This document shows positions 1-27,781 of a stretch of DNA of 28,675 nucleotides, one piece after another; positions within the stretch are counted from its first letter, which is position 1; each line of letters begins with the position of its first letter. Below the pieces are notes generated by a model. That model worked only from the letters and a program-made list of their open reading frames with translations, did not search any database and was not told the origin of the DNA. The stretch lies in the IMG/VR virus record IMGVR_UViG_3300033571_012329, positions 1 to 28,675 of that record. One strand, 5' to 3'. The stretch is from a virus. The position numbers and the translations under genes were made by a program.

Positions 1-90
1 CTGAAGGGGTACGGCGAGATCGAGCGTCGGACGATCCGACTCAACGGCGTCCTCGACACCGAGATCGGAGATCGGCTGCTGGCATTGTAG
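1..90 (+). CDS. C-terminal end of an unidentified protein (partial)
   Basis: An open frame runs from the first base to a TAG stop at 88-90 and encodes the last 29 residues of a protein whose start lies outside the window. The fragment is charged and rich in Arg, Glu and Leu; too little remains to assign a family. It is on the same strand as all the other genes, so the upstream region is probably part of the same early operon. Confidence 0.55.
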   Translation: MKGYGEIERRTIRLNGVLDTEIGDRLLAL

Positions 91-106
91 TCTGGAAGTG
101 TTCACC
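88..106 (+). promoter_or_regulatory. Recurrent TAGTCTGGA element, copy A
   Basis: The sequence TAGTCTGGAAGTGTTCACC overlaps the stop codon of the first gene. It matches copy B at 2192-2210 at 18 of 19 bases and copy C at 12085-12103 at 15 of 19. A strong GC-rich hairpin begins at its last bases. The role is unknown; an operator, promoter part or RNA processing signal are all possible. Confidence 0.55.
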
Positions 107-135
107 CGGCGGGCGGCAACTTCGCCCCCGCCGGG
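105..135 (+). terminator. GC-rich hairpin, terminator-like without a T-tract
   Basis: CCCGGCGGG (105-113) pairs perfectly with CCCGCCGGG (127-135); inside, GGC (115-117) can pair with GCC (124-126). No T-run follows, so it is not a canonical intrinsic terminator. It could slow polymerase, protect a 3' end or act as an attenuator between the first gene and the gene at 157. Confidence 0.5.
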
Positions 136-156
136 AACCATCACGGAGGGAAAATC

Positions 157-486
157 ATGGCACGACGAGACCCAAAACTCACCTACCAGAATTTCGGCAA
201 GTTCCGACATACGTGGATTCATGAAGCCGATCGGATTTTCAGCGAATGCGATGAGTTCGTCGCTCAGCCGCCGTCTGTCAGTCCGCAGTCTGCTCGCCAC
301 TGGAGACGAGCCGCCAAGCTCTACGAGAGGTCTGCGGACTTCTACCGTCGTGCTGGTCTGGGAATCAAATCGATCGAGAGTTGGAAGTGTGCGGAGCGGT
401 GCTACGCCGCCCTTCACATGGCTGATGATCAAGAGCGTTGCCGATTGAAGGCTGTTTCGATCCCTGTTTACTACGAGGAGGACTGA
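157..486 (+). CDS. Small helical protein, function unknown
   Basis: A 109-residue protein. The ATG start is preceded at good distance by a GGAGGG ribosome binding site (about 145-150). The middle (roughly residues 45-95) is a run of amphipathic helices with regularly spaced Ala, Tyr, Arg and Cys, resembling a TPR or SNAP-like helical hairpin, which would suggest protein-protein contact; that is inference only. It ends one base before the next gene at 488 and is probably cotranscribed with it. I do not recognise the family. Confidence 0.75.
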   Translation: MARRDPKLTYQNFGKFRHTWIHEADRIFSECDEFVAQPPSVSPQSARHWRRAAKLYERSADFYRRAGLGIKSIESWKCAERCYAALHMADDQERCRLKAVSIPVYYEED

Positions 487-487
487 C

Positions 488-781
488 ATGGAAGTTGGAG
501 ACGTGGTCTACACGGCGACAGTGTTTACCGGCGACAAGCCGTGGGTGCATTTCGCCAAGAGAACGATCTCGGCAGTGATGCCGACGGGCTACGTGGTCGA
601 TGCTGTCGGCCATCCGACGGCGGTGATGAAAGCCGAAGAGTTGCACGCGACTCAGGCCGAGGCTGCTGCTCGTGCGATCGACAAGCTGAGGGGATCGATG
701 GCGAAGATCATCGAGGCCCATCTCAAGCAGATTCAAGAAGTGGAAAAAACTGGCTTGCAGGACGCAAGTCTCTCGGTATAG
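488..781 (+). CDS. Small early protein, function unknown
   Basis: A 97-residue protein with a GAGGAGG ribosome binding site that overlaps the end of the previous gene, so the two are probably translationally coupled. Residues 1-50 look like a small beta-rich domain with a Gly-Asp-Val-Val-Tyr opening; residues 50-90 form a long Ala- and Glu-rich helix. This beta-domain-plus-helix layout is common in small early phage proteins of unknown role. No catalytic motif is visible. Confidence 0.75.
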   Translation: MEVGDVVYTATVFTGDKPWVHFAKRTISAVMPTGYVVDAVGHPTAVMKAEELHATQAEAAARAIDKLRGSMAKIIEAHLKQIQEVEKTGLQDASLSV

Positions 782-800
782 TCTCGGATCACTAAACCAA

Positions 801-808
801 AGTACGGA
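801..808 (+). promoter_or_regulatory. Recurrent AGTACGGA element, copy F (degenerate)
   Basis: AGTACGGA in the 38-base gap before the SNF2 helicase. It matches the core of copies C, D and E (TAGTACGGA) but lacks the leading T. It lies 11 bases upstream of the helicase ATG, where a ribosome binding site would be expected but is not obvious. A second look-alike (ATAGTCTCGGA) lies at about 778-788. Confidence 0.4.
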
Positions 809-819
809 TACGCTGAATC

Positions 820-2187
820 ATGGCTTCAAGGAAGAAGCCGTGGCCGCATCAGGCGGCTGCGGTGGCGTGGCTTGTCGCACGTCTATACGGATATCTGAAT
901 CACGAAATGGGCTGCGGCAAGACGCTTGTAGCCATTTTGGCGACGGCAGGATGCCGAAGCACGCTCGTGGTCTGCCCGATTGCAGTCGGACCAGCATGGA
1001 TTGCACAGGTCGCATCATCGGGCGACTCTCGCCGGGTCTGCCTAGCCGTCGAAGGATCGGCGGCTAGGCGGGCCGAGCGTATCAAAGAGGCTCTTTCGAG
1101 CGACGAGCCGACGATCGTAGTCATCAACTACGATTCCGTCTGGAGGCCTGAGATCGCGAAAGTGATCGCAGGGACTCAGTGGGACGCGATCATTCTCGAC
1201 GAGTCTCACCGGATTAAGTCTCACACGGGCAAGGCCTCGAAGTTCTTGTGCAAGCTGGCGGAACGTCAGCCGCAGGCCAAGAGGCTCTGTCTTTCCGGTA
1301 CTCCGACTCCGAAAGACCCGCTCGACTGGTACGCACAAATCAAGTTTCTTGACCCCGGGATTCTTGGCTGCTCGTACCCGGCTTTCCGCAATCGGATCGC
1401 CAACACTCACCCGAAATATCCGGGCTGGATCACCGGCTTCAAGCAGGATGGTCTCGACGCTCTCCGCGAGCGGATAGACCAGCACGTGCATCGAGTCAAG
1501 AGCGACGACGTCCTCGACCTACCCGAGGCGATCCACACGGTGATCGAGGTGGAAATCACCGGAAAAACCAGACAGTTCTACGACTCGCTCGAAAACGACA
1601 TGATCGCGTTTCTCGACGGCGAGCCGGTGACGGCTGCGAATCAGCTTGTCGTGGTCAGCAGACTTCGCACGGCGGCGGGCGGCTACAGTCGCATCGACGG
1701 CGGCAGTGAGTTCCAGTTGATCGACGGGACGCCTGCCAAGTCTTTGACGTTCGCGGACTGGCTCGAAGACTTCCCGCAACGCACGCCTCTCGTGGTTTTC
1801 TGCTCGTTCGTCCGCGACATCGAAGAGGTCGTCTCCCAGTGTCGCAAGGCAGGCAGGAGCGTGTCTCAGCTACGCGGGGGCACGAACCAACTTTCCGAAT
1901 GGCAGGCCGGTGAGACGGACGTGATCGTGATCCAGCAGCAGTCTGGCGGTGCGGGGATCGACTGCACGAGGGCCAGCCACTGCGTGTACTACAGCGTCGG
2001 CCACAGCTTGGGCGACTTCGACCAAAGCCTCGCGAGGCTCCGCAGGCCGGGCCAGAAACACACGTGCCGCTACTACCACTTTGTTGTGAAGAACACGGTG
2101 GAGGAGACGATCTACGCCGCACTGCAAAACAAGAGAGACGTGGTTGAGGAAGTTCTATCGAGGCTGACAAGGAGGGTCGCGAAATGA
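820..2187 (+). CDS. SNF2-family DEAD/DEAH-like helicase (phage type)
   Basis: A 455-residue superfamily 2 ATPase. Visible motifs in order: Walker A (MGCGKT, 30-35), Walker B/DESH (127-130), motif III SGTP (159-162), motif V (SGGAGID, about 375-381) and motif VI with an arginine finger (QSLARLRRPGQ, about 402-412). The C-terminal RPGQ and VEETIY signatures are typical of Swi2/Snf2 proteins. Phage members are compact, with no extra DNA-binding domains, and are usually placed in replication or recombination modules; the precise role (fork remodelling, strand exchange) is not known. The gene overlaps the next one by four bases. The start has no clear ribosome binding site; an AGTACGGA element lies just upstream. 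Confidence 0.9.
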   Translation: MASRKKPWPHQAAAVAWLVARLYGYLNHEMGCGKTLVAILATAGCRSTLVVCPIAVGPAWIAQVASSGDSRRVCLAVEGSAARRAERIKEALSSDEPTIVVINYDSVWRPEIAKVIAGTQWDAIILDESHRIKSHTGKASKFLCKLAERQPQAKRLCLSGTPTPKDPLDWYAQIKFLDPGILGCSYPAFRNRIANTHPKYPGWITGFKQDGLDALRERIDQHVHRVKSDDVLDLPEAIHTVIEVEITGKTRQFYDSLENDMIAFLDGEPVTAANQLVVVSRLRTAAGGYSRIDGGSEFQLIDGTPAKSLTFADWLEDFPQRTPLVVFCSFVRDIEEVVSQCRKAGRSVSQLRGGTNQLSEWQAGETDVIVIQQQSGGAGIDCTRASHCVYYSVGHSLGDFDQSLARLRRPGQKHTCRYYHFVVKNTVEETIYAALQNKRDVVEEVLSRLTRRVAK

Positions 2188-3005
2188 GTGATAGTCTGGA
2201 AGTGTTTACCGACATGAGCAATGAGACCTATCACGGGCGAAAGTCGCACGTGAGCCGGTCGCAGGCGAGTCGGTATCGAGGTGTTCGCGGAGGGCGAGCG
2301 CAGCGTTACGAGGAGGTGAAGGGTGGCAAGCTATTCGAGGGCAATGCCGGGACGTCTTTCGGGACGCTCGTGGACGTCGCCTTCGAGGCTGAGGCTCGTG
2401 GTCTCGACTGGCGGAGCCGGTGTGCTGTCGCGCCGCCGGAGGTGCTGACATCGAACGGCCAGCGGCGTGGCAACGCGTTCGCGGCGTGGAAAGAGAGCCT
2501 TCCGCCCGGTGCGTTGGAGTGCAGCGTGGCCGACTTCGTGAAGGTCGCCGACATCATCGAGTCTCTCAAGGAACACAAGATCGCTCGTCAGTTGCTGGAG
2601 TCGATCAAGCACACGCAGTACAGCGTGTTCTGGAAGGACGAGGACGGGCACGACCGCAAGGCACGACCTGACGGCTTGAACGACGACGAGTGGTTTGACT
2701 TGAAGACGACGAGCAGCGAGTTCAGCAAGCTCAAGTATTCGTTCCGCGAGTTTGCCTATGACTGGCAGGCAGCTTGGTATCTGGACAGTGCGATCGCCGC
2801 AGGATGGAAGCCTTTCAGATTCCGCTTCATCGTTGTCCAGACTTTCGCTCCGTATGACGTCGCTGTCTTTAGTCTCGAAGACGAGGCGATCGAGAACGCT
2901 CGTCACGAGATCAGGAAGACTCTGGCAGACATGAAGCACCGTCGCGAGACGGGAGTCTACGTGCCTGATCAATATCACGCGGAGCAAGTGTTGGAGTTGG
3001 GTTGA
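2184..3005 (+). CDS. PD-(D/E)XK nuclease, DUF3799 / RecE-C-like
   Basis: A 273-residue protein resembling the exodeoxyribonuclease VIII/DUF3799 nuclease domain found in phage recombination modules. Signatures: an early Asn-Glu-x-Tyr-His (13-17), FGTLVD (59-64), RPDG with probable metal ligand D163, DLKTT with D172 and K174, and the downstream YDWQAAWYLD helix with Q195, all as expected for this fold. It probably resects double-stranded ends to expose single strands for annealing or strand exchange together with the neighbouring helicase and the protein at 3062. The start at 2184 has an AAGGAGG site (2169-2175); a second ATG at 2214 is possible. The recurrent TAGTCTGGA element lies inside its first codons. 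Confidence 0.85.
   Translation: MSDSLEVFTDMSNETYHGRKSHVSRSQASRYRGVRGGRAQRYEEVKGGKLFEGNAGTSFGTLVDVAFEAEARGLDWRSRCAVAPPEVLTSNGQRRGNAFAAWKESLPPGALECSVADFVKVADIIESLKEHKIARQLLESIKHTQYSVFWKDEDGHDRKARPDGLNDDEWFDLKTTSSEFSKLKYSFREFAYDWQAAWYLDSAIAAGWKPFRFRFIVVQTFAPYDVAVFSLEDEAIENARHEIRKTLADMKHRRETGVYVPDQYHAEQVLELG
2192..2210 (+). promoter_or_regulatory. Recurrent TAGTCTGGA element, copy B (inside a coding start)
   Basis: TAGTCTGGAAGTGTTTACC, within codons 3-9 of the nuclease gene. It differs from copy A at one base (T for C in TTTACC). Its position inside a reading frame argues against a simple ribosome-binding or untranslated-leader role, unless the true gene start is the ATG at 2214. Confidence 0.5.
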
Positions 3006-3008
3006 TTG

Positions 3009-3031
3009 TCGAGTCGGACTGTCTGACTCGA
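3009..3031 (+). terminator. 23-base near-palindrome between two recombination genes
   Basis: TCGAGTC (3009-3015) pairs with GACTCGA (3025-3031), and the inner bases are also nearly self-complementary about T3020. TTTGTT follows. It could be a weak terminator or attenuator, or a dimeric operator, in the 56-base gap before the gene at 3062. Confidence 0.4.
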
Positions 3032-3061
3032 TTTGTTCGGTAGGCAAGGAGGATCATCATC

Positions 3062-3805
3062 ATGGCGAATGCCATCGCGACGGTAGGTAGTTTCGGTCTG
3101 TCGGTCAGCGGAGACGATTTCCGCAGGAACGAGCAGACGATCGTGAAGATTCCCGGCGGCGGGATCACGAAGTGGTCGTGGTCGACCATACTCGGCGATC
3201 AGGTGGAGAGCGAGATCACTGGCGTGATCGTGGCTCTCACCGAGGTGCAGCACGACCTGTGGCCTCACACGGGTCAGGCTTCTGAGAAGTCGAGCCCGTA
3301 CATGCGGAGCCTCGACGGCAAGACGGCGAAGATCGTGGGGGCTGACTCCGGCGACCTCGACGTCAAGCACATCGAAGCGGCGAGGATCGAGGGCACCGAA
3401 TTTTTCGACTGCTCGAAGATCAAGTATTTCCTGTGGGAGAAGCAGGGCGATCGAAACATCCCGCCGCGTGCCAACGCGACGAGTACGATCGGCATCCTCC
3501 GCGCGGGAGACTCGGCTCCTCTTTTCATCCGGCTGTCGAAGACCTCGTCGCCGAAGGTGCAGGAGTTCGCTCGTCGGCTGCGTGGTCAGGGCGTGCAGCC
3601 CTATCAGGCGATCGTGAGTCTCGGTCTGGAGGCTGTGAAGGGTGCGAAGGCGACCTACAGCCGCGTGGTGCCGAAGTTCGTCAGCCCGGCCCCGGCGGAG
3701 ATGGTCGACGCGTTTCGTAGCTACTTCGAGCAAGTCTCGCCGAAACTGCGTGGCTCGATGGAACTCTACGTGGGCAAGGAATCGCTCGACGCGGTTCCCT
3801 TCTGA
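3062..3805 (+). CDS. Putative ssDNA-binding or recombination accessory protein
   Basis: A 247-residue protein with a perfect AAGGAGG site (3047-3053). The N-terminal half contains a KIPGGGITKW segment (about 29-38), followed by an E-x-x-G-V-I-V strand (about 50-58), a Leu-Trp-Pro motif, and S-x-D-G. This pattern recurs in phage proteins that sit between a RecE/DUF3799 nuclease and a primase or helicase and that are often annotated as ssDNA-binding-like. A basic, Gln-rich C-terminal half (170-230) is predicted helical. The assignment rests on pattern memory and position, not on catalytic residues. The gene ends just before a TAGTACGGA element and a strong hairpin, so it probably closes a transcription unit. 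Confidence 0.65.
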   Translation: MANAIATVGSFGLSVSGDDFRRNEQTIVKIPGGGITKWSWSTILGDQVESEITGVIVALTEVQHDLWPHTGQASEKSSPYMRSLDGKTAKIVGADSGDLDVKHIEAARIEGTEFFDCSKIKYFLWEKQGDRNIPPRANATSTIGILRAGDSAPLFIRLSKTSSPKVQEFARRLRGQGVQPYQAIVSLGLEAVKGAKATYSRVVPKFVSPAPAEMVDAFRSYFEQVSPKLRGSMELYVGKESLDAVPF

Positions 3806-3808
3806 TCG

Positions 3809-3818
3809 ATAGTACGGA
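3809..3818 (+). promoter_or_regulatory. Recurrent ATAGTACGGA element, copy D
   Basis: ATAGTACGGA directly after the stop of the gene at 3062 and 14 bases before a large hairpin. Copy A has the same order (element, then GC-rich hairpin). Confidence 0.5.
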
Positions 3819-3832
3819 CTCGTGTTCTTTTT

Positions 3833-3868
3833 GCCCGGCCGGTGTGGGGCTGTCCCCACCGGCCGGGC
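3833..3868. terminator. Strong GC-rich hairpin, probable bidirectional terminator
   Basis: GCCCGGCCGGTG (3833-3844) pairs perfectly with CACCGGCCGGGC (3857-3868), and GGG/CCC can extend the stem past a bulge. A T-tract precedes it (TTCTTTTT, 3825-3832) and a looser T-rich stretch follows (ATTTCTC, then ATTTTTC). This is the best terminator candidate in the window and separates the recombination genes from the primase-polymerase. Confidence 0.65.
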
Positions 3869-3904
3869 ATTTCTCACCATTTTTCATCAATCCAAGGAGG
3901 TTTT

Positions 3905-5503
3905 GTGGAGTACCGCGCACAGGAAGTGTTTCAGGCGGCGGCGGCAGTCGCAGGCAAGGGCTGGAAGGTCGTCAAGCTTTACGGCGTCAAGGACGACGCC
4001 ACGTGTACGTGCCACCGTGGGGCTCAGTGCCCAACTCCGGGCAAGCACCCGGCCGGTGGTGCAGACTGGCAGAATCGTGCCACCGACGACGAGGACAAAA
4101 TCTCTGAGTGGTTCGACTACTCTGACACGAGCCAGAGCGACCGAGTCAACGTCGGCGTGAGACTTGGCGAGTCCAGCGGCATCATCGACGTCGAGGTCGA
4201 CGGCCCGGAGGCCGAGGAGACCCTGCGAAAGTATGGTCTCGACAAGATCGCGACCCCAACCTACCGGGCGTCTCGTGGATGCCACCGGATTTTCAAGTAC
4301 GAGGACGATCTTCCTGACGTCGGAGTCGTGAAGGTCGACCAGCTTGAGGTGAGACTTGGCGGCGGCGGTAAGGCCGCTCAGTCCGTCATGCCATCGTCTT
4401 GGCATCGGACGGGCATCCAATACTTGTGGCTCCCCGGCCTGTCTCTGGAAGAGGTTGAACCGGCACCACTGCCACCAGAGTTCCGGGCGGCTGTGAAGGC
4501 CAACAGCAAGCAAGGCGGCAGCGGGGCCGTCGCTCAGGCCGTGCAGGCGATCATCGGAGAGGTTCAGGTGCCGATCGGGAATCGGCACGGATACTTGGTC
4601 GGCGTCGCCTCGTGGCTGTGCGGCAACCTGAAGAGGCACTTGCCCGAGGATCGCACCATCGTCACGAACCTCCTGCTCGCCCAGAACAGGTCTCTGCCCT
4701 CGCCAAAGGCTCCTGAAGAGGTCATGCGGATCGCCGCAGACCAGTTCGAGTATTACCGGATGCGTGCCGAGGAGCGTCGCAATAACCGCGAACGTCCGTT
4801 CGAGGCCTACGGTCTGGAGTGGAACTTAGAGAGCCGCGAGTGGGATGCCGGGACGTGGTCGCTCACGATCATCCGCTCCGATCCTGTCGAGTACCGTCTC
4901 ACGTTCCCTCACGAGGGGCGTGTTGTCAGCGTCTCGATGAACGAGACTCAAATCTACAACCCTGTCGTCGTGTCATCGCTCATCCTGTCTGCCAGCACGA
5001 ACATCGACATGATGGTGCCGTACTCGGACGCGTGGAAGCTTCTTTGGATGGGAGGGCGGGTTCGCGACGGAGACGGCTGGAGGAACGTGGTCTCGCTCCG
5101 GGCGAGGCTGATCCAAGACGCCGAGGTCGAGACGCCTTCGCTCGACTCCTGCATCTGGAGCCAGCACGCAGCCATCCTGAGAGGCTATCTGAGGCCGTTC
5201 AGCCGGTCAGACGACGACGAGAACGACCCTCCGTGTGCCGACGGCACGCCAAAGTGGATCAAGAAGGGCGGAAGCTGGCTCCTGTACTTCAAGTGGCAGG
5301 AAATGCTCAGGGCTGCGTGGCGGACCGTCTCCGTGCCGATCACGGTCGAGCAGGAGCGGACCCTGAAGAGGAAAATCCTCGAAGTCACAGGCGAGAAGGA
5401 CTTCAAGGAGGCGGGCTTCCACCACAACGGCGAGAGTCTGGGCAAGTTCAAGGTCTGGACCGACGCCCATATCAACGCGCTCGACCAACTCACCGGGGCT
5501 TGA
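3905..5503 (+). CDS. Primase-polymerase (archaeo-eukaryotic primase type, Prim-Pol)
   Basis: A 532-residue protein from a GTG start with AAGGAGG four bases upstream (3894-3900); an ATG further up at 3842 falls inside the terminator hairpin and is unlikely. Residues 15-200 match the bifunctional primase/polymerase N-terminal domain: Cys-rich insert and GKHP (34-49), the metal-binding DxE triad region D95-V-E-V-D99, the SRGCHR motif with H127, and the PSSWH motif (163-167) before the Y-x-W strand. The C-terminal part (200-532) is probably a primase C-terminal and linker region; I see no Walker A helicase motif in it, unlike many phage Prim-Pol-helicase fusions. The protein would prime, and possibly extend, phage DNA. 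No replicative polymerase is visible in this window. Confidence 0.82.
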   Translation: MEYRAQEVFQAAAAVAGKGWKVVKLYGVKDDATCTCHRGAQCPTPGKHPAGGADWQNRATDDEDKISEWFDYSDTSQSDRVNVGVRLGESSGIIDVEVDGPEAEETLRKYGLDKIATPTYRASRGCHRIFKYEDDLPDVGVVKVDQLEVRLGGGGKAAQSVMPSSWHRTGIQYLWLPGLSLEEVEPAPLPPEFRAAVKANSKQGGSGAVAQAVQAIIGEVQVPIGNRHGYLVGVASWLCGNLKRHLPEDRTIVTNLLLAQNRSLPSPKAPEEVMRIAADQFEYYRMRAEERRNNRERPFEAYGLEWNLESREWDAGTWSLTIIRSDPVEYRLTFPHEGRVVSVSMNETQIYNPVVVSSLILSASTNIDMMVPYSDAWKLLWMGGRVRDGDGWRNVVSLRARLIQDAEVETPSLDSCIWSQHAAILRGYLRPFSRSDDDENDPPCADGTPKWIKKGGSWLLYFKWQEMLRAAWRTVSVPITVEQERTLKRKILEVTGEKDFKEAGFHHNGESLGKFKVWTDAHINALDQLTGA

Positions 5504-5687
5504 TCGCGATCTCTCTATATAGGGAGGTTTCATTTTTTAAATCGAAAATATGAGGTATGGGGTATTACACGTCAAAGTGCGGAATGTAACCCCAAACCAG
5601 ATAAGGATTTGTGTCTTATATAGTGCAATACCCCGAGCGAATCATGTCGGGGTTGCGGAGGTATGACTTACCAAGGAGATGGAGAAG
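5504..5687 (+). other. AT-rich noncoding gap with GGGGTATT/AATACCCC repeats
   Basis: This gap of about 184 bases is much richer in A+T than its surroundings. It holds CTATATAGGG (5515-5524), GGGGTATT (5559-5566), GTAACCCC (about 5587-5594), GCAATACCCC (5625-5634) and a hairpin made of ACCCCGA (5630-5636) and TCGGGGT (5647-5653). The same words recur only in the noncoding region before the terminase. It may be a replication origin, control region or packaging-related site. A TATAGT at 5619-5624 could serve as a -10 box, but no matching -35 is visible. Confidence 0.6.
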
Positions 5688-7355
5688 ATGGGCAAGGTAG
5701 AGAGGCATATTGGCGGTCCGGGCACCGGAAAGACCCGGCTGATCCTCGATCGGCTCAGCGAGACGAAGCGAGAGTTTAGTTTGTCGATCGACGAGATAGC
5801 TCTTTGCACATTCACCCGTGCGGGCAGGCAGGAGCTATCGGAGCGGGCTGCGGCGGAGTGGGGCTGCGACCCGGAGTCGCTGACCAAGCATGGGTGGTTC
5901 CGGACCGCCCACTCGATCTCTCACCGTCAGTGCCACGTCGAGGAGGGGCAGCTTCTCCAAGGATCGGAAGGGGCCGAGTGGATTGGCGAAGTCGTCGGAG
6001 GGAAGGTCGCCACTCGGTACGACGCTCGAAGCCGTGAGGTCAGCTTCGTGTCTGGCGAGAGCGACAACACTCTGACCCGCGCCCTCGCCGCGTGGGACTT
6101 GGCACGAGCCAACATGACCAGCCTGAAGGCAGTCCTGCGACGCTGGGCTGCGGCAGGAGAACACGTGCCAGACTCGCACGCAGTCGCGAGGTACATCGAG
6201 AAGTACGAAACAGCCAAGCGGAGGCAGGGTCGGCTCGACTACACCGACATCATTGCGAAGTTTGCAGGGATCAGGTTCACCATCGACGGCCCGGAGGAAA
6301 CCCTGCCCGAGGGCGAAGTCCCGGCTGGCATAAAGGCTCTGGCGATCGACGAGGCTCAGGACTCGTCGGTGCTGGTCGATCGCGTCTGCCGCCGTCTTGC
6401 TGAGAGTCCGTCGATCGAGCGAGTCTTCCTGAGCGGTGACGCGTACCAGAGCATCTACTCATTCAACGGCTCTGACTATCGGCTCTTCCTGAACTGGGAG
6501 GCGGAGGAGTTTATCATGCCACGCTCTTACCGATGCCCGCCTGTCGTGATGGAGCTTGGCGAGCGTTGTATCCGCCGTATGCGTCACGGCTACCGCGATA
6601 GGCGGATTCAGCCTGCGGAACACACTGGGCGTGTCAGGCGAGTCTCTCAGGCACGGCAGGCGATCGATGCCATAAAGCCAGACGAGTCTGTGCTGATCCT
6701 TGGCCGATGCGGATTCGCACTGAGCGAGTACGAAGACATCCTCAAGAGCAAGCACGTTCCGTACACGTGGATCGACAGAGTCGGCAGTGCCTCGGAAATG
6801 TCTGGATACAGTTGCTTGTGGTCTCTCCAGCATGGCAAGCCCGTCCACCACGACGACTGGGCCAACGCGATCGCGATGATCCCTGCGGAAGACGTCAGGC
6901 TCGGCCAGTTGCTTGTTCGTGGCGAAAAGGCAGCGTGGAAGAAGGGGCTCCGTTCCAACGTGGACGTGATCCTTCCGACCGACGAGCACCTGACTCTCGC
7001 CGGAGCGACGGAGGCGTTCGCTGGCCTGATCCGCAACGGTAGCTGGCACGAGTACCTCGACAAGTCTCACTCGAAGAAGGCAAGCCGCTGGGTCGAGGCT
7101 GCGAAGAGGTTTGGCCCGGACACTGCCTGCAATCCGAAGGTCCGCCTGTCAACGATCCACAGTGCCAAAGGGTGCGAGGGGGACACGGTGATTCTCTCGA
7201 CGATCTCAAGCCCTGCCGTGGAGCGAGGTCGTCAGGAGGTCGACGACATCCACGACGAGGAGTGCCGCGTGAACTACGTGGCCGTGACTCGTGCCCGGAA
7301 AGACTTGTGGATCGTCAACGACGGCGGCAAGTTTGCGATGGAGATTCCCGCATGA
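5688..7355 (+). CDS. UvrD/PcrA-like superfamily 1 helicase
   Basis: A 555-residue SF1 helicase. The ATG at 5688 is chosen because AAGGAG (5673-5678) lies nine bases upstream; the ATG at 5679 abuts it directly. Motifs: Walker A GGPGTGKT (9-16), motif Ia TFTRAGRQEL (41-50), Walker B DEAQD (221-225), motif III GDAYQSIYSF (250-259), motif IV SYRCPP (280-285), motif V STIHSAKG (near residue 487) and motif VI YVAVTRARKDL (near 530-540). This is the UvrD/Rep type, a 3'-5' translocase that unwinds DNA; family members normally exceed 600 residues, so this is a compact phage form with reduced 1B and 2B insertions. It probably supplies the helicase activity that the neighbouring Prim-Pol lacks. It overlaps the next gene by ATGA. 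Confidence 0.92.
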   Translation: MGKVERHIGGPGTGKTRLILDRLSETKREFSLSIDEIALCTFTRAGRQELSERAAAEWGCDPESLTKHGWFRTAHSISHRQCHVEEGQLLQGSEGAEWIGEVVGGKVATRYDARSREVSFVSGESDNTLTRALAAWDLARANMTSLKAVLRRWAAAGEHVPDSHAVARYIEKYETAKRRQGRLDYTDIIAKFAGIRFTIDGPEETLPEGEVPAGIKALAIDEAQDSSVLVDRVCRRLAESPSIERVFLSGDAYQSIYSFNGSDYRLFLNWEAEEFIMPRSYRCPPVVMELGERCIRRMRHGYRDRRIQPAEHTGRVRRVSQARQAIDAIKPDESVLILGRCGFALSEYEDILKSKHVPYTWIDRVGSASEMSGYSCLWSLQHGKPVHHDDWANAIAMIPAEDVRLGQLLVRGEKAAWKKGLRSNVDVILPTDEHLTLAGATEAFAGLIRNGSWHEYLDKSHSKKASRWVEAAKRFGPDTACNPKVRLSTIHSAKGCEGDTVILSTISSPAVERGRQEVDDIHDEECRVNYVAVTRARKDLWIVNDGGKFAMEIPA

Positions 7356-7819
7356 ACCAGCTTTTCGACACGTCTCCGATCGAGGACGAGGACGGCAAAA
7401 AGAAGAAGAAGGGCAAGAAGAAGCAGCCCGAGCCGCAGCACGTCACGACCTACCGGCGAGAGCCTGACGTTGAGTTGGCCCAGCCCGGCTACCTCGCCAG
7501 CATCGAGGGTCACTACTCGTGCGACCGCTGCGGGCTGACGACTCTCGACCTGATTGACGTCCGTGGCACGAAGTGGCTCGTAATGTGCGGCTGGTGGTGT
7601 CTGCACTCGTGGCTCGTGGACCCGATCCCCGGCCTGCTCGACAAAGAGGATCGCAAGCAAGCCCCGGACGCGTTTGTCATGCGAGACGGTCTCTTTAGCG
7701 GCAAGACTTTCGACGAGATCGCTGCTGCCGGTGGCCGGGCCTACATCGAGTCTCTGCCTGTCGTGTCGAAGAGACAGGCTGTCAAAGACGCCGCGAAAAA
7801 ATGGCTTGACAGTCATTGA
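7352..7819 (+). CDS. Zinc-finger protein with ExoX-C-like tail
   Basis: A 155-residue protein that starts in an ATGA overlap with the helicase gene, implying coupled translation. Residues 10-27 are a Lys-rich linker. C57xxC60 and C79xxxC83 probably bind zinc. Residues 113-152 (GLFSGKTFDEIA, then a Tyr and helix) resemble the small C-terminal domain found after ExoX-type exonucleases and in many stand-alone phage proteins, which is thought to contact DNA. No exonuclease active site is present. A DNA-binding partner of the UvrD-like helicase is a reasonable guess. Confidence 0.65.
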   Translation: MNQLFDTSPIEDEDGKKKKKGKKKQPEPQHVTTYRREPDVELAQPGYLASIEGHYSCDRCGLTTLDLIDVRGTKWLVMCGWWCLHSWLVDPIPGLLDKEDRKQAPDAFVMRDGLFSGKTFDEIAAAGGRAYIESLPVVSKRQAVKDAAKKWLDSH

Positions 7820-7833
7820 ATAGTACGGATACT
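7806..7833 (+). promoter_or_regulatory. Possible promoter with TAGTACGGA element, copy E
   Basis: TTGACA (7806-7811, inside the previous stop region) and GATACT (7828-7833) are spaced by 16 bases, a fair sigma-70-like pair. The recurrent TAGTACGGA (7821-7829) lies across the spacer and -10. The pair at 12078-12105 (TTGACG, 16 bases, TACCTT) has the same spacing, but the element sits at a different place relative to its -35, so the promoter reading remains uncertain. Confidence 0.35.
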
Positions 7834-7865
7834 CACCCCCACACCGCATCTCAAAAGGAGTTGAT

Positions 7866-8333
7866 ATGCCCAAGCCTCTGCCCGGCGTCGTTGACGCTCT
7901 TCAGGCCTCTCTCAGGAATCACTGGACGCAAATCGCGGCCTACGAGACTCAGGCGTCTCACTTCGCACGATGGGGATATTCCCAGCTTGGCGTGGCGTTT
8001 CAGGACTACGCGGTTGAGGAGCGTGACCACGCGAAGAAGCTGATCGACCGTCTGGAGTTCTTCGACTCCCAGCCCACCTACGAGTTCGAGCAGCCGCTGT
8101 GGCCCCGTCATGACTTCGAGGGAATCCTCGAAGTGAACTACGTGTTCGAGACCACGACGGCCAACACAGAACGGTCTGGATACCTTCTCTGCGTTGAACT
8201 GGGTGACGCCGAGACTGCGGCGATCTTCGCCGACCTCCTGAAGGGCAGCGAAGACGGCATGGCAGAGATCGAGGCCACGCGTCTCGTGATCGACCAGATT
8301 GGCCTCGACAACTATCTGGCGGATCGCACGTGA
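7866..8333 (+). CDS. Bacterioferritin-like protein with incomplete ferroxidase site
   Basis: A 155-residue four-helix protein behind an AAAGGAG site. It aligns by eye along its whole length with bacterioferritin: an early AYE helix, HFARWG (32-37), the EERDHA box with E52 and H55 (equivalent to the family E51/H54), RLEFF, a long loop, and the terminal IGLDNYL (145-151). Differences: the first-helix Glu is replaced by H19; the second ExxH is not kept (S128 and G131 at the aligned positions); the heme-ligand Met is Arg53. It therefore probably keeps the fold but not a standard diiron or heme site. It could be a structural or regulatory ferritin-like protein, or an iron binder with altered ligands. 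Function in the phage is unknown. Confidence 0.7.
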   Translation: MPKPLPGVVDALQASLRNHWTQIAAYETQASHFARWGYSQLGVAFQDYAVEERDHAKKLIDRLEFFDSQPTYEFEQPLWPRHDFEGILEVNYVFETTTANTERSGYLLCVELGDAETAAIFADLLKGSEDGMAEIEATRLVIDQIGLDNYLADRT

Positions 8334-8482
8334 AGCGACTTTGCAACCGCTGCAACGCGGAGAAGACGTCCAACGCACCGTGCGAGAAGTGCGGGTGCCA
8401 AGAGTTCCGAATCATCGGACCACCATGTCCGTCAGGTGCTGCATATCACGGCACCGTTGGTAGCCAAGCCGGTGTTGGCTGA
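8330..8482 (+). CDS. Small zinc-ribbon protein
   Basis: A 50-residue protein whose GTG start overlaps the previous stop (GTGA). C5xxC8 and C18xxC21 (plus C23) form a classic rubredoxin-like zinc knuckle pair in the first half; the C-terminal half is Gly- and Ala-rich and probably disordered. Such short ribbons in phages often bind nucleic acid or host RNA polymerase, but nothing here shows which. Confidence 0.6.
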   Translation: MKRLCNRCNAEKTSNAPCEKCGCQEFRIIGPPCPSGAAYHGTVGSQAGVG

Positions 8483-8564
8483 TAACCCCGGCTGTCGAGG
8501 CGAGTGTTTAGCTCTTTTCCGCTTGTGACTCGATCGTCTGCCTCACGTTACGAGGCCCATACAC

Positions 8565-8813
8565 ATGATGGACGACCTAGCAGAAATCAACCCTGAAGCC
8601 CTGCTCGCCGACGGCCTCGAAAAGGCTTTCGTTGGCTACACCGTCAATCACCACCACGCTCACGTCGCTGTGTATGACGTGCAGAGGTGCGTCGACATTC
8701 TCGTCGAGCGTGATGGCATGACTCACGAGGGTGCTGAAGAGTACCTGTCGTTTAACACCCTTGGTTGTTACGTGGGGCCGAATGGGCCGATTTACGTGAG
8801 GATGACCGCATGA
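8565..8813 (+). CDS. Conserved small phage protein, function unknown
   Basis: An 82-residue protein that starts at one of two adjacent ATGs (8565 or 8568). The body DGLEKAFVGY, then VDILVERDGM, then EEYLSFNTLG with YVGPNGP, matches a family seen in many unrelated phages and in phage-like regions; its role is not known to me. Two His-rich positions (HHHAH, about 28-32) are a variation within the loop. It ends in an ATGA overlap with the HNH gene. The 82-base gap before it contains no other clear gene. Confidence 0.75.
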   Translation: MMDDLAEINPEALLADGLEKAFVGYTVNHHHAHVAVYDVQRCVDILVERDGMTHEGAEEYLSFNTLGCYVGPNGPIYVRMTA

Positions 8814-9604
8814 AGTCAGACAAGCGAAAAAGAGCGGGCATTTCGTCGAAGACTCGTTGGGATGTTTTTCGCAGGGATGGTTTTAAGTGCATCTACTGCG
8901 GCTCCTGCGAGGAGCTTGTTATAGACCACGTAGACCCATTTGCCCGTGGAGGCATTGACTCACAAGACAATTTTGCGACGGCCTGTAGGAGGTGCAACTC
9001 AGGGAAGCGAGACAAAGTTCTTGTGCCTCCGCTTGCTGTAAATCAGGAATTTTTTGACGAGCAAAGGGTCGTGAGTTCTGGTGTTTCGTATAGAAACCAC
9101 CTGCACAAAGACTGGGGCCAAGCCCTTCAGCACGCAGATTGTTTTTCTGCGGTCGAATACATCGCAGACAAAAAACTTTGCCAAGGGGCAGATTTCAGTA
9201 TGTGTTCGATGCTCACAGGACAAAGGCGGTACATGCGGGTTGTTATCGCCAGCATGTGCGACGAGCGTTCGCCTGAGCAGCAGAACAAAATACGCGAAGC
9301 GGTTTCTAGGGCGTTGAACAGAGATAAAACAATCCTTCTGATTGGGTCTCCGTTTTACTTCTACGCGATGGTAATCGATTTGTATTACCCGGAGTCGCCA
9401 TGCGTTGGTCAACTAACAGACAGTCTGACGCTGTCAGATCGGACTATAGATCGTTCTGATCTCGAAGAGTGGCTCTCTCTCACCGAGGAAGATTTTGTGG
9501 AGCCTGCTGACGCTTTTTACCTCAAAGCCAGAAGTTTCCCTTGGAGGAAACGCATGGACGAGATTTACGAGGGTTCTTGTGCAATACGAAATAAAAGCAA
9601 TTGA
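8810..9604 (+). CDS. HNH endonuclease
   Basis: A 264-residue protein starting in ATGA. The N-terminal domain is an HNH nuclease of the CxxC type: C27xxC30, D39-H40, N54, C59xxC62 and N63, with the typical basic start (KTRWDVFRRDGFKC). Residues 90-264 are unlike the common HNH families and could be a DNA-recognition or regulatory domain. Codon use and base composition are more A+T rich than the neighbouring genes, as in the next gene, which suggests recent acquisition of the pair. It could be a homing endonuclease or a defence/recombination nuclease. Confidence 0.85.
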   Translation: MKSDKRKRAGISSKTRWDVFRRDGFKCIYCGSCEELVIDHVDPFARGGIDSQDNFATACRRCNSGKRDKVLVPPLAVNQEFFDEQRVVSSGVSYRNHLHKDWGQALQHADCFSAVEYIADKKLCQGADFSMCSMLTGQRRYMRVVIASMCDERSPEQQNKIREAVSRALNRDKTILLIGSPFYFYAMVIDLYYPESPCVGQLTDSLTLSDRTIDRSDLEEWLSLTEEDFVEPADAFYLKARSFPWRKRMDEIYEGSCAIRNKSN

Positions 9605-10139
9605 GACAAAGTACAAGGGCATCTTGTTTCGTTCGCGCCTTGAAGCCAAGTGGGCGTGCTTCTTCGACCTTCTGGGGTGGAAGTGGAGGTATGAGCCAGC
9701 AGACTTCAACGGATGGATTCCTGACTTCGCCATTTATGGAGCAGATTGCGTCTATGTCGAGGTGAAGCCTGTAATCGATTTCCCTACTGACGTTGCTGAG
9801 AAGATAGACGCCAGCGGTTGCAGGAATGAAGTTTTGATTCTTGGTGAGCTTGGACCGGAACTCGGTAGTGAAGACTATTGGTTTCGTTTGGGCTGGCTGA
9901 GAGAAGTTAATCATTACGATGAGGCTTCGGCTCCTGATTTTTTATGGGATGAAGCTGTGCTGGGGAGGTGGGAGGCAGGAAAGGGTTCTATTGGATTTTG
10001 TCATTCCGGCATTGCATTTTCGGACAGAATTTCTGGCGGGTACGACGGGGGATGCTTCGGCGAATTGCCGCTGCATTGGGATGAGATAGATGAGTTGTGG
10101 GCTGCTGCCTGTAACTCGACTCGCTGGAAGCCTCGCTAA
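9579..10139 (+). CDS. PD-(D/E)XK-type nuclease-like protein (RSRLEA family)
   Basis: A 186-residue protein. The GTG at 9579 is preferred, with GAGGG five bases upstream; an in-frame ATG at 9495 would overlap the HNH gene by 110 bases. The FRSRLEAKWA motif (17-26, E22), PDF (48-50, D49) and EVKP (61-64, E61/K63) reproduce the spacing of a PD-(D/E)XK active site and the signature of a family common in phages and plasmids. The C-terminal 100 residues are Trp- and Gly-rich with no known motif. Base composition is A+T rich like the HNH gene, so the two probably moved together. Probably a DNA endonuclease; substrate unknown. Confidence 0.72.
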   Translation: MQYEIKAIETKYKGILFRSRLEAKWACFFDLLGWKWRYEPADFNGWIPDFAIYGADCVYVEVKPVIDFPTDVAEKIDASGCRNEVLILGELGPELGSEDYWFRLGWLREVNHYDEASAPDFLWDEAVLGRWEAGKGSIGFCHSGIAFSDRISGGYDGGCFGELPLHWDEIDELWAAACNSTRWKPR

Positions 10140-10154
10140 AGGCAAGGAAGCCTC

Positions 10155-10895
10155 ATGTCCGTAAAATCCCTCGCCAAAAAACACATCGCATACACCGACC
10201 TCCTCAACGAGTTCGAGTCCCCGTTTTCGTCGAACAAGGTCACCGGCCACTCCCTGAATTTCCCGATCATCAACAGTTGCACGCCGACGATCGTCTGTGC
10301 CGAGACGTGCTACTTCGCGAAGGGGCCATCCACTTGGACGGCTTCTCTCAAGAAGCAGCACCGCCTCATGAACTCGATCAAAGCCTCGCCGACGCACATG
10401 GCTGTGATTATCGCCGACTGGACTCGTCGACTGAAGCTCGACTTCGTTCGCTGGAACGGCGGCGGAGACTTGTTCGCCGAGAGCGTCGACTGCATCAACC
10501 GGGCCGCGCCGCTCATGCCGACGATCCCGCAGTGGATCGTGAGTAGGAAGCCCAAGCTGGCGGCGGCGATCGAGCCTGCCTCGAACGTCTACGTGCATTT
10601 CTCGGTCGACAAGACGTCATGGGATCGTCTCGAAGAGATGCAGAGCCTTGCCCCGGCCGGGCTGCAATGGTTTTGGTCTTACCAGTGCGATAAGGGCGAG
10701 ACTCCGCCAGACCCGATGGTCGCGCCGGTGATCTTCCGCGACGGCTACGATCCAAAAGGCGGGGAATTGTACGGAAACGACTGCCCGCTCAATGCAAACG
10801 AAGATATCGCAGGCGTCTGCGGCAAATGCCAGCGTTGCTTTAACGGCTGGGCAATTGAGGGGGCAAAGGAATGCCTGTCTCAGACACGGCGTTAG
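10155..10895 (+). CDS. Gp88-like / radical-SAM-related cysteine protein
   Basis: A 246-residue protein with an AAGGAAG site. It resembles the phage gene product 88 family (first named in mycobacteriophages) and, more distantly, DUF5131/Gp37-Gp68 proteins: SLNFPIINSCTPT then C42, C48 and C52-Y53 near the N terminus, a conserved RWNGGGDLF core (99-107), an IVSRKP strand, and a C-terminal cluster C210, C222, C225, C228. The N-terminal cysteines suggest an iron-sulfur cluster of radical-SAM type, the C-terminal ones a second cluster or zinc site. Chemistry and substrate are not established. It overlaps the next nuclease-like gene by 25 bases. Confidence 0.75.
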   Translation: MSVKSLAKKHIAYTDLLNEFESPFSSNKVTGHSLNFPIINSCTPTIVCAETCYFAKGPSTWTASLKKQHRLMNSIKASPTHMAVIIADWTRRLKLDFVRWNGGGDLFAESVDCINRAAPLMPTIPQWIVSRKPKLAAAIEPASNVYVHFSVDKTSWDRLEEMQSLAPAGLQWFWSYQCDKGETPPDPMVAPVIFRDGYDPKGGELYGNDCPLNANEDIAGVCGKCQRCFNGWAIEGAKECLSQTRR

Positions 10896-11257
10896 GAGAG
10901 GTCGGTCGGCTGCTCGCGTCGGCGGAGATGCTTTTGCACGGCATATCTGCAACTCGACCAGAGTGCGACGTCGGCGTCGACATCGTGGCTGTGTTTGGTC
11001 AGAAAGCGTGTCGCGTTCAGGTGAAGTCAGTGCGAGATCACAAGCCATCACCGCGAACTAAAGCACACAAGTTCAAGATTCGGCGGTCGAGGACTGGTGG
11101 CGTCTATGCAAACCATGAGATCGACGCGTTTGTGTTTGTCAGCATCGCAAGTAAGTCGTTTTGGGTGGTCCCAGTGAGCGACCTGAATCTTTCGGCACAC
11201 GCCGTTTTTCATCACCCCGGATCGCGATGGCACAACGCGTGGCACTTACTGAAATGA
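10871..11257 (+). CDS. PD-(D/E)XK-like protein, QVK variant
   Basis: A 128-residue protein. The layout G-x-x-AE (E19), VGVDIVAV (D37) and VQVKS (Q50, K52) is that of small PD-(D/E)XK proteins in which Gln replaces the second acidic residue, as in Mrr-like and some resolvase-like members. The remainder is beta-rich with FVFVSI and FWVVPV strands, typical of the family fold. Overlaps at both ends (25 bases with gp88-like, ATGA with the next gene) indicate a tight operon. Confidence 0.68.
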   Translation: MPVSDTALGEVGRLLASAEMLLHGISATRPECDVGVDIVAVFGQKACRVQVKSVRDHKPSPRTKAHKFKIRRSRTGGVYANHEIDAFVFVSIASKSFWVVPVSDLNLSAHAVFHHPGSRWHNAWHLLK

Positions 11258-11541
11258 CACTCGAAACCACCATCACGAGGTCGATTGTGACGCTCGCGAA
11301 AGCGAAGGGGTGGTGGACGTTCAAGATTGCTGGCGGGCCGATGCAGATGGCTGGAGTTCCAGACTTGTTGACAGTGAAGCATGGACGAGCGGTGTTCCTC
11401 GAAGTGAAGCAGCCGGGCAAGAAGTCTCGCCCGCTTCAAGTGCAGAGGATGAAAGAGATACGCGAGATCGGCGGAGCCGTCGCGGAAGTGGTCACGAGCA
11501 GGGCTGAGGCAGAAAGGATTCTCGATGCGAACGATGTATGA
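11254..11541 (+). CDS. VRR-NUC domain nuclease
   Basis: A 95-residue, single-domain VRR-NUC protein. GVPDLL (D37), FLEVKQPGKK (E50, V51, K52) and the following PLQ (Q62) are the textbook residues of this Holliday-junction-resolvase-like family. Phage VRR-NUC proteins cut branched or flapped DNA. It starts in an ATGA overlap and shares 17 bases with the next gene. Confidence 0.88.
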   Translation: MTLETTITRSIVTLAKAKGWWTFKIAGGPMQMAGVPDLLTVKHGRAVFLEVKQPGKKSRPLQVQRMKEIREIGGAVAEVVTSRAEAERILDANDV

Positions 11542-11968
11542 GACAGAGGCCGATCTAAGCAACGAGGCTGCGGTCCGCAGCTACGTGGCTCAGACCTTCT
11601 CTGCCGAAGTCAACAAGGTGCCGCTCAGCTACGGCGTCGACTCGATGGTCTCCGTGGACGGCAAGCTCGTGGCGTGGCTGGAGATCAAGTGCAGGCCCGG
11701 CATGACGTGGGGGCAGTATCCGGACGTCATGATTTCCGTCCTGAAGCTGCGGGCAGCGGCTGGGCTGAAGGCCTCGACCGGCATCGACACGCACTTCGTC
11801 GTGGCCGACTCTTGCGGCGTCATCAAGAGTGCGAACCTCTGCAAGACTTCGCCTGATTGGATCAAGTACGGCGGCAGGACCGCCCAGACACGAGACCCGG
11901 CCGACATCGAGCCCGTCTGTCACATACCTCTCGAACAGTTCACGGAGGGCACGCCGTGGGGTCAATAA
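11525..11968 (+). CDS. PD-(D/E)XK-like protein
   Basis: A 147-residue protein. SNEAAVRSY (E14), YGVDSMVSV (D39) and WLEIKCRPG (E53, K55) fit the PD-(D/E)XK core. Residues 60-110 include a helix and a beta-hairpin (THFVVADSCGVI) usual for the C-terminal half of this fold. It is the fourth such protein in a row, apart from the Gp88-like gene. The exact subfamily is unknown to me. Confidence 0.68.
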   Translation: MRTMYETEADLSNEAAVRSYVAQTFSAEVNKVPLSYGVDSMVSVDGKLVAWLEIKCRPGMTWGQYPDVMISVLKLRAAAGLKASTGIDTHFVVADSCGVIKSANLCKTSPDWIKYGGRTAQTRDPADIEPVCHIPLEQFTEGTPWGQ

Positions 11969-12081
11969 CAACACGTGAGACTTGGCCTCCAGAGCCGCCG
12001 AATAAGCCACCCAAACACTGGGAATGGCAGATCGTCGACGGCGTCAAAAAACTCGTCCCGATCAAGAAAAAAACCCCTTGA
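11956..12081 (+). CDS. Small basic protein
   Basis: A 41-residue protein from GTG 11956, six bases after GGAGGG (11944-11949). Pro-rich start (PPEPPNKPPK), a Trp-rich centre (HWEWQIVDG) and a Lys-rich tail. It shares 13 bases with the nuclease before it. The good ribosome binding site is the main support; function unknown. Confidence 0.5.
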   Translation: MGSITTRETWPPEPPNKPPKHWEWQIVDGVKKLVPIKKKTP

Positions 12082-12084
12082 CGA

Positions 12085-12103
12085 TAGTACGGAAGCGGTT
12101 ACC
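12085..12103 (+). promoter_or_regulatory. Recurrent TAGTACGGA element, copy C
   Basis: TAGTACGGAAGCGGTTACC lies immediately upstream of the ATG at 12106; TTGACG (12078-12083) and TACCTT (12100-12105) could be a -35/-10 pair with 16-base spacing, but the -10 would touch the start codon. The element rather than the promoter pair is the better-supported feature. Confidence 0.5.
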
Positions 12104-12105
12104 TT

Positions 12106-17585: not shown

Positions 17586-18678
17586 GATCACAGTTTCGGC
17601 TCTCGTCACAGTGATCGTCGTGTCGTTCATCGGCGCGCTCGTTCAACTGGCGACGTTCCGTCTGGCGAATCACATTGAGAACAACTTCGGTTACCAGCCT
17701 AATCCGGCTGGCCTGAAAGAGTTCCTCGGTGAACTCAAGGAGCCGACTTTTGCTCAGGCTGGTGCCGACGCCGTGAAGAAGGCGAAGGGCAAGGATGTGT
17801 ACCTTTATCGGTACGCGGATCAGGCTCATCGCAAGGTCTACGGAACGCCGTTTGAGGCTTGGAATCAGGGCTCTGCTGGCACGTGCGTGAGCTTTGGGTG
17901 GGGACTCGGAGCGTACATCGGCCAGAGCGTTGATTACGCGACGGGCTCGCTGCCGAATGCACCACTTGAATGCGACACGTCCGGAATTTACGGCGGAAGT
18001 CGAACAGCCGGAAGAATGCCTCCCGTGAATGGAAACGCGGGATTCTCAGACGGCAGCTACGGCGCGGCTGCGGCGAGGTGGGTCGCTGGCAAGTGCAAGC
18101 AGACGGGCATAGGCGGGATTCTGTACAAGCAAAAGTACGGAAGCACTGACCTGACCAACTACTCGATTCCGCGATCGCGCGAGTGGGGAAACTCTGGAGT
18201 GCCGCTCGATCTCGCGAAGGAGGCGAACAAGCACACTGCAAAAGCAGTCGCCCAAGTCTCCACGTGGGAGGAACTTAGCGCGGCACTTGAGTCAGGTTAT
18301 TGCGTCCCGATCTGCTCGAACGTCGGCTTCGCTGCGACGAACGTCAGGGATGAGGACGGCCTGCTTCCAAGGGGGTCGCAGTGGTCGCACTGCATGCTCA
18401 TAGCAGGAATTCGTCACGCCGCCAATGCCCCCGAGAACGGCATGAAGCGTCCCCGCGACTGTGCGCTCATTATCAATTCTTGGGGCACCCGGTGGGTCGT
18501 CGGCGGAAAGCTTCCCGCCGATCAGCCAGACGGAAGCTTCTGGGCTGAACGCAAAGACGTCGAGGCGATCCTCGCCCAAGGCGATTCATTCGCGATCGGC
18601 GGGGTGAGTGGATTCGCGTATCGAGACTTGGATCACGGCGGATGGCTGCAACCGGGAGCGAACGATGAAAGTAAGTGA
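17572..18678 (+). CDS. Membrane-anchored papain-like (C1) cysteine peptidase
   Basis: A 368-residue protein. Residues 7-30 are a transmembrane anchor. The peptidase domain has the papain order of catalytic residues: the oxyanion Gln and nucleophile in WNQGSAGTC (Q99, C105), H273 in the SHCMLIAG strand, and N302 in INSWG, followed by the usual aromatic tail (SGFAYR). The spacing is close to that of bacterial C1A-like enzymes. Likely extracytoplasmic, facing the envelope: processing of host surface proteins or peptidoglycan-linked peptides, or virion maturation, are options. It sits among several small anchored proteins, and no ordinary endolysin is visible in the window. Confidence 0.85.
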   Translation: MPRSRITVSALVTVIVVSFIGALVQLATFRLANHIENNFGYQPNPAGLKEFLGELKEPTFAQAGADAVKKAKGKDVYLYRYADQAHRKVYGTPFEAWNQGSAGTCVSFGWGLGAYIGQSVDYATGSLPNAPLECDTSGIYGGSRTAGRMPPVNGNAGFSDGSYGAAAARWVAGKCKQTGIGGILYKQKYGSTDLTNYSIPRSREWGNSGVPLDLAKEANKHTAKAVAQVSTWEELSAALESGYCVPICSNVGFAATNVRDEDGLLPRGSQWSHCMLIAGIRHAANAPENGMKRPRDCALIINSWGTRWVVGGKLPADQPDGSFWAERKDVEAILAQGDSFAIGGVSGFAYRDLDHGGWLQPGANDESK

Positions 18679-27697: not shown

Positions 27698-27781
27698 CTC
27701 TCGATTTAAGACAGTTCTGAATAGTCTGGGTATGGGGACACCCTTTTCGAGAAGTGGGCTTTGTAGCTCATTTAATGCAAT

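What the first reader, a model, noticed from the sequence alone, without database searches (positions are those of the whole stretch)
88..12103. A recurrent TAGT(A/C)(C/T)GGA element marks gene boundaries of the early region
TAGTCTGGA or TAGTACGGA, always on the + strand, occurs at 88-96, 2192-2200, 3810-3818, 7821-7829 and 12085-12093, with degenerate copies at 801-808 and 27722-27730. Three copies (A, B, C) stay similar over 19 bases up to ACC. Almost all lie in the few short gaps between early genes, none in the 12.1-27.7 kb half. It is not explained by ribosome binding sites, and possible -35/-10 pairs sit at different distances from it. It may be an operator, an activator-dependent early promoter, or an RNA signal controlling a regulon that includes the helicases, recombination genes and the bacterioferritin-like gene.
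Basis: partly seen in the sequence, partly recalled or inferred. Interest (0 to 1): 0.72.

Follow-up and report, generated by a model that had tools for sequence, protein, structure and literature searches.

The report
Dispersed one-way binding sites in phage
An uncultivated temperate bacterial virus carries about twenty copies of a 20-letter DNA signal, all pointing the same way and mostly at the ends of genes, which look like docking sites for one viral control protein that holds the virus's genes off, an arrangement so far well described only in a few laboratory phages.

Summary
All five exact TAGTMYGGA copies exist (+ strand only; 0.27 expected). Related IMG/VR phage contigs show it to be a subset of an asymmetric 20-mer, A[TA][AT]GT[AC][CT]GGA[TCA][AGT]CNNTYRCC, with about 15-26 copies per contig: 114 forward versus 2 reverse hits above 14 bits in five contigs. 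In two distant contigs not used for training it scores 26/0 and 18/0. The window has eleven copies, four or five of them inside genes. Intragenic copies are under synonymous constraint. Gap copies keep their core (89% identity) while flanks fall to 49-58%. Sites mostly sit right after a stop codon, and some overlap or follow sigma70-like promoters in different registers. No flanking -35, Shine-Dalgarno or RNA structure is conserved. The fuller phage contigs have an integrase and a gene for a predicted tandem winged-HTH protein whose own ribosome-binding site lies in a copy, directly behind a terminator, in both clades. Best reading: a stoperator-like operator network, new in motif and candidate regulator. 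Binding and repression are inferred, not shown.

The parts
87..106 (+). element copy 1; its TAG (88-90) is the stop codon of the upstream DUF932-domain gene
   Evidence: same place in G001, G002, G005-G009
105..135 (+). very stable GC hairpin right after copy 1; same place, different sequence in relatives
   Evidence: mean -32 kcal/mol over 7 contigs against -16.4 background
755..782 (+). sigma70-like promoter TTGCAG-N16-TATAGT just upstream of copy 2
   Evidence: same pair found in G001, G005, G006, G007
   Evidence: 21.8 bits; orthologous copies in G001, G002, G005-G009
2191..2210 (+). element copy 3, across the first codons of the RecE-like exonuclease gene 2184-3005
3809..3828 (+). element copy 4, right after the stop codon (3803-3805) of gene 3062-3805
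3833..3868 (+). very stable hairpin after copy 4, terminator-like in some relatives; conserved place, diverged sequence
   Evidence: mean -35.6 kcal/mol
6797..6816 (+). element copy inside the UvrD-like helicase gene; codons kept identical in five phages
7806..7833 (+). sigma70-like promoter TTGACA-N16-GATACT; the element lies over its spacer and -10
   Evidence: the same in G001, G005, G007; related in G008
7820..7839 (+). element copy directly after the stop codon of the preceding gene, before the ferritin-like gene 7866-8333
8171..8190 (+). element copy inside the ferritin-like gene
   Evidence: 15.5 bits
10766..10785 (+). element copy inside the GP88-family gene; a Tyr-to-Ser codon change in G006 stays within the motif (AC to CT)
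12078..12105 (+). possible sigma70-like promoter TTGACG-N16-TACCTT; the element fills its spacer
   Evidence: sequence; TTGACG pair in G005, G006, G007; below the score cut
12084..12103 (+). element copy before gene 12106-12510
18132..18151 (+). element copy inside gene 17572-18678
27721..27740 (+). weak element copy (12.7 bits) in a gap; weak orthologues in G005 and G006

Best explanation
The element is a double-stranded DNA binding site of about 20 bp for a regulator of this temperate phage, repeated about twenty times and always pointing with the rightward (lytic and late) transcription. A few copies lie over or just behind promoters and act as ordinary operators. Most lie behind stop codons or inside genes without a promoter and would hold up RNA polymerase that has escaped, as stoperators do in cluster A mycobacteriophages. 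The likeliest binder is the phage's own tandem winged-HTH protein, encoded beside the integrase (in G001 at about 1829-2302, some 24 kb before the start of the window; also in G005, G008-G010), which would bind as a monomer with two unlike domains and so read a site without twofold symmetry; it would also control its own synthesis through the copy in its ribosome-binding region. Shown here: motif, orientation, positions, constraint, co-occurrence with the gene, predicted fold. Inferred: that this protein binds, that binding represses, and that it stops elongation.
For: Count and strand: 123 forward and 3 reverse above 10.5 bits in five contigs, column-permuted matrices mean 7.5; synonymous-shuffled genomes give 8.0 +/- 2.8 against 114 above 14 bits. 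Distant G008 and G009, not used in training: 26/0 and 18/0 above 14 bits. Core identity 89% against 58% upstream and 49% downstream at 13 orthologous gap sites. Intragenic copies: 26 of 33 codons for conserved residues identical against 368 of 1047 elsewhere, p = 8e-7. 71 of 148 sites start within 30 nt of a stop codon. Promoter-like pairs near 23 elements against 5.0 expected, in two registers. No conserved flank, and gap and intragenic profiles alike. Integrase and tandem HTH gene in the same phages; terminator, element, Shine-Dalgarno, HTH gene in the same order in five contigs of two clades although the hairpin sequences differ. The two distant contigs were found independently by HTH protein and by DNA motif. 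Predicted structure: two winged-HTH domains, pLDDT 76, best solved match TraN, a monomeric two-wHTH repressor that regulates its own promoter (PMC10877727).
Against: No binding or expression data. The HTH model rests on five sequences and its Foldseek matches are modest (best E 4.8e-3). A second tandem HTH_17 protein lies in the early region and could be the binder. The HTH gene sits where an excisionase or cro-like gene often sits, and a weak profile match is to excisionases. Nearly all genes are rightward, so 'with transcription' and 'one absolute direction' cannot be told apart. No element was found on the leftward integrase side. The codon test favours conserved sites because they were found by score.
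Confidence: 0.58

Rival explanations
1. The element is itself a promoter or an activator-dependent promoter box (its TACNNT resembles a -10), giving each operon segment its own start during lytic growth.
For: Several copies have TTGAC-like hexamers 16-18 bp upstream of a -10 made of element bases. In the HTH leader the element is almost the only sequence between terminator and gene.
Against: Averaged over 34 gap clusters there is no -35 signal at any fixed distance. In other copies the promoter lies wholly upstream and the element is at about +10. The Shine-Dalgarno of the HTH gene lies inside the element, so a start downstream of it would lose it. Intragenic copies far from gene ends are equally constrained. 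No single-subunit RNA polymerase hit (weak negative) and no sigma factor over the cut-off.
Confidence: 0.17
2. The element acts in RNA: an antitermination, processing or translation signal carried in the transcript (nut/put-like or a protein-binding leader element).
For: One orientation only, many copies close upstream of the next gene, and two copies (window 87 and 3809) run straight into very stable conserved-position hairpins.
Against: The 20-mer does not fold, shows no compensatory pairing, and no Rfam family matches the window. Several copies lie over a -35/-10 pair and would be left out of that promoter's transcript. Intragenic copies far from any start exist.
Confidence: 0.12
3. Same operator network, but the binder is another protein: the second tandem HTH_17 protein of the early region (G002 36200-36577 minus strand and relatives) or a host regulator.
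For: HTH_17 matches in all seven contigs, two of them in one 170-residue frame of G002.
Against: It has no element at its own ribosome-binding site in the contigs looked at, while the lysogeny-module HTH gene does in five contigs.
Confidence: 0.12
4. Chance or codon usage: the 9-mer is a by-product of composition and of common peptides such as SGY or YGS.
For: Some intragenic copies encode SGY or YGN peptides.
Against: Shuffle, synonymous-shuffle, permuted-matrix, reverse-strand and out-of-sample controls all fail to reproduce it.
Confidence: 0.01

Closest known systems
Stoperators of cluster A mycobacteriophages (L5, Bxb1, TipsytheTRex) and their Rep repressor
   Same: 20-30 sites without dyad symmetry spread over the genome, predominantly one orientation relative to transcription, few at promoters and most not, one in the repressor's own upstream region, monomeric repressor with two unlike DNA-binding domains (PMC6550527, PMC9283540).
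   Different: Motif is unrelated and longer (20 against 13-14 bp); the L5 consensus, given from memory, has only chance-level matches in the window; a third to nearly half of copies here are inside genes; the candidate regulator is predicted to have two winged-HTH domains and has no sequence match to any solved structure; host and phage are different and uncultivated.
SPbeta repeated element (SPBRE) bound by MrpR
   Same: One motif repeated in intergenic regions of a temperate phage and bound by its master repressor (PMC10516654).
   Different: SPBRE is a 15-bp motif found at promoters; MrpR has a tyrosine-recombinase fold, the candidate here does not.
TraN of plasmid pIP501
   Same: Monomer with two winged-HTH motifs, repressor, binds its own promoter (PMC10877727); best solved fold match of the candidate regulator.
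   Different: Plasmid transfer regulator with two known sites; no sequence relation found.

Membership tests
Cluster A stoperator system | 20-30 copies of one motif dispersed over a phage genome | tested here: met
   roughly 15-26 strong copies per contig of 39-94 kb
Cluster A stoperator system | asymmetric site in one orientation relative to transcription | tested here: met
   123/3 (above 10.5 bits), 26/0 and 18/0 (above 14 bits) forward/reverse; caveat that almost all genes point the same way
Cluster A stoperator system | some copies in promoters, most not | tested here: met
   23 of about 148 near promoter-like pairs (prediction only)
Cluster A stoperator system | 13-14 bp consensus of the L5 clade | tested here: not met
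   4 matches with 2 mismatches, 1.36 expected, none at the element
Cluster A stoperator system | homologous Rep repressor (HTH plus Stoperator domain) | tested here: not met
   no sequence match to any PDB chain; best fold match is TraN, no cluster A repressor among the 50 listed
Cluster A stoperator system | repressor-dependent, orientation-dependent stop of elongation | not testable with these tools
   needs reporter assays
SPBRE/MrpR system | binder with tyrosine-recombinase fold | tested here: inconclusive
   the candidate is tandem winged HTH, but the binder itself is not proven
Promoters of a phage RNA polymerase or sigma factor | phage encodes such a polymerase or sigma factor | tested here: inconclusive
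   no PF00940 match but no control rang; only sub-threshold HTH-like matches to Sigma70_r4
Structured RNA element | conserved fold or covariation | tested here: not met
Temperate phage with lambda-type cI repressor (HTH_3) | HTH_3 repressor gene | tested here: not met
   none in seven contigs, controls ring in 14 of 14; contigs may be incomplete

The most novel reading that the evidence does not exclude
An independent invention of the stoperator strategy: a phage family unrelated to mycobacteriophages silences its prophage by about twenty directional roadblocks bound by a monomeric protein made of two excisionase-like winged-HTH domains, with roadblocks also written into coding sequence by synonymous choice and coupled at two gene ends to strong hairpins.
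Probability: 0.4. Interest if true: 0.75.

Novelty: new variant of a known kind. Interest (0 to 1): 0.6.

Why it matters
Control of a whole prophage by dozens of one-way roadblocks is documented for very few phages, and how the direction is sensed by RNA polymerase is open. A second system with a different protein fold and a longer site would allow a comparison of what is essential. It would also give a motif by which lysogeny regulation can be read off uncultivated phage contigs.

Tried and rejected
Cultured relatives: none by DNA and only distant protein matches. Host: two scans of 85,000 species genomes with two different proteins found no prophage relative, so the host is unknown. G003 and G004, which share one 19-mer with the window, are taken as chance hits: G004 is unrelated by blastn to the window and its copies run against the direction of most of its genes, and G003 has a single copy. 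Four other contigs from the motif scan carry only one or two copies and were not followed. Hairpin reading of the 20-mer rejected. A T7-like promoter resemblance of TAGTACGGACTC was considered: it does not hold for the full motif and no polymerase gene was found. A leftward gene next to the integrase was considered as repressor: it is not conserved in G008/G009, whereas the HTH gene is. The single-sequence structure prediction was too poor to use. A literature search for a further described system of this kind by descriptive words found nothing.

Full report
Observation. The window is a 28,675-bp virus record. A nearly identical, longer contig (G001, IMGVR_UViG_3300032313_000663, 54.3 kb, 99.3% identical over the whole window) extends 25.6 kb upstream. 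Further relatives: G002 (3300034103_000802), G005 (3300027747_001390), G006 (3300032305_001858), G007 (3300034101_002812) and, more distant, G008 (3300032293_001730) and G009 (3300032304_001793); G010 (3300037189_023019) is a short fragment. The exact 9-mer has 10, 5, 9, 9 and 10 copies in G001, G002, G005, G006 and G007 in one orientation, against 0, 0, 0, 1 and 1 in the other.

The true motif. Iterating a weight matrix over orthologue-weighted sites gave a 20-mer A[TA][AT]GT[AC][CT]GGA[TCA][AGT]CNNTYRCC. Above 14 bits there are 114 forward and 2 reverse hits in five contigs. Column-permuted matrices give 1.4, and shuffles that keep every protein and its codon usage give 8.0 +/- 2.8. G008 and G009 were not used for training and give 26/0 and 18/0. 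Left-one-cluster-out scores stay above 14 bits for 39 of 46 independent positions. Positions 5-6 are coupled (AC, CT or CC), as a base step read by a protein could be.

Constraint. At 13 orthologous gap positions the core keeps 89% pairwise identity, the 20 bases before it 58%, the 20 after it 49%. In six coding positions shared by four or five phages, 26 of 33 codons for unchanged residues are identical inside the element against 368 of 1047 elsewhere in the same genes (p = 8e-7; somewhat inflated because sites were picked by score). In the GP88 gene a Tyr codon TAC stands as a Ser codon TCT in G006, which changes the protein but stays within the allowed forms of the motif.

Positions. Of 148 sites in six contigs 71 start within 30 nt of the end of the upstream gene, 25 lie in other gaps, 52 inside genes. 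In 15 the TAG of the element is itself the stop codon. Promoter-like TTGACA/TATAAT pairs lie near 23 elements against 5.0 by rotation, in two registers: with the element over the spacer and -10 (window 7806-7833), or with the promoter ending before the element (window 755-782). By inspection a third window promoter, 12078-12105, has the element in its spacer, but it is below the cut. No -35, Shine-Dalgarno or other feature is conserved at a fixed distance, and gap and intragenic profiles are the same. Two copies (window 87 and 3809) run into hairpins of about -28 to -44 kcal/mol, kept in place but not in sequence in seven contigs.

The phage and the candidate regulator. G001 and G005 carry a tyrosine integrase and next to it a rightward gene for a 156-residue protein with an HTH_17 match. 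In G001, G005, G008, G009 and G010 the order is intrinsic terminator, element, Shine-Dalgarno, HTH gene, although the hairpins of the two clades differ in sequence. The HTH protein is 54% identical between the clades. The same two distant contigs were found once by this protein and once by the DNA motif. With five sequences AlphaFold2 gives two consecutive winged-HTH domains (residues 5-62 and 65-117, pLDDT 76). The best solved match is TraN of pIP501 (E 4.8e-3), a monomeric repressor with two wHTH motifs that also binds its own promoter (PMC10877727). No HTH_3 repressor was found.

Mechanism and comparison. Cluster A mycobacteriophages have 20-30 asymmetric sites oriented with transcription, few of them promoter operators and most 'stoperators', with one upstream of the repressor gene (PMC6550527). 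Their repressor is a monomer with two unlike DNA-binding domains, and reversed sites do not stop elongation (PMC9283540). The arrangement here matches each of these points that can be read from sequence. It differs in motif, in the predicted fold of the candidate and in the many intragenic copies. I therefore say that it works like a stoperator system (inferred) and is not a member of the cluster A family. Binding, repression and the stop of elongation are untested.

Limits. Host unknown. Gene calls are my own codon-score calls. Promoter scoring used E. coli-like weights from general knowledge. A second tandem HTH_17 protein could be the binder. Almost all genes run rightward, so orientation with transcription cannot be separated from a fixed absolute orientation.

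Noticed in passing
window 105-135 and 3833-3868: Two extremely stable GC hairpins at gene ends, each directly behind an element, kept in position with compensatory sequence change in seven contigs.
   Followed up: partly
G002 36200-36577 (minus strand); likely counterparts at G005 39812, G006 11777, G001 21059, G007 8205: A second small protein in the early region with HTH_17 matches, two of them in one frame in G002; function unknown.
   Followed up: partly
window 7866-8333: Ferritin-like protein gene (PF00210) in a phage early region, preceded by a promoter-like pair that carries the element.
   Followed up: no
window 3062-3805: A 247-residue protein next to the RecE-like exonuclease, 85-87% identical in relatives, no Pfam or PHROGs match; its place suggests a single-strand annealing or ssDNA-binding role.
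   Followed up: no
window 21802-21831 and 22764-22793: Perfect 30-base direct repeat in the tail-protein region, likely from duplicated tail protein segments.
   Followed up: no
L025 3325-3561 (minus), L015 1438-1665 (minus): Conserved 79-residue leftward gene between integrase and HTH gene in clade A, absent from clade B; no family match.
   Followed up: partly
L024 1514-6778 and 13263-18527 (G005): Two very large proteins of 1754 residues in the structural region, nearly without family matches.
   Followed up: no
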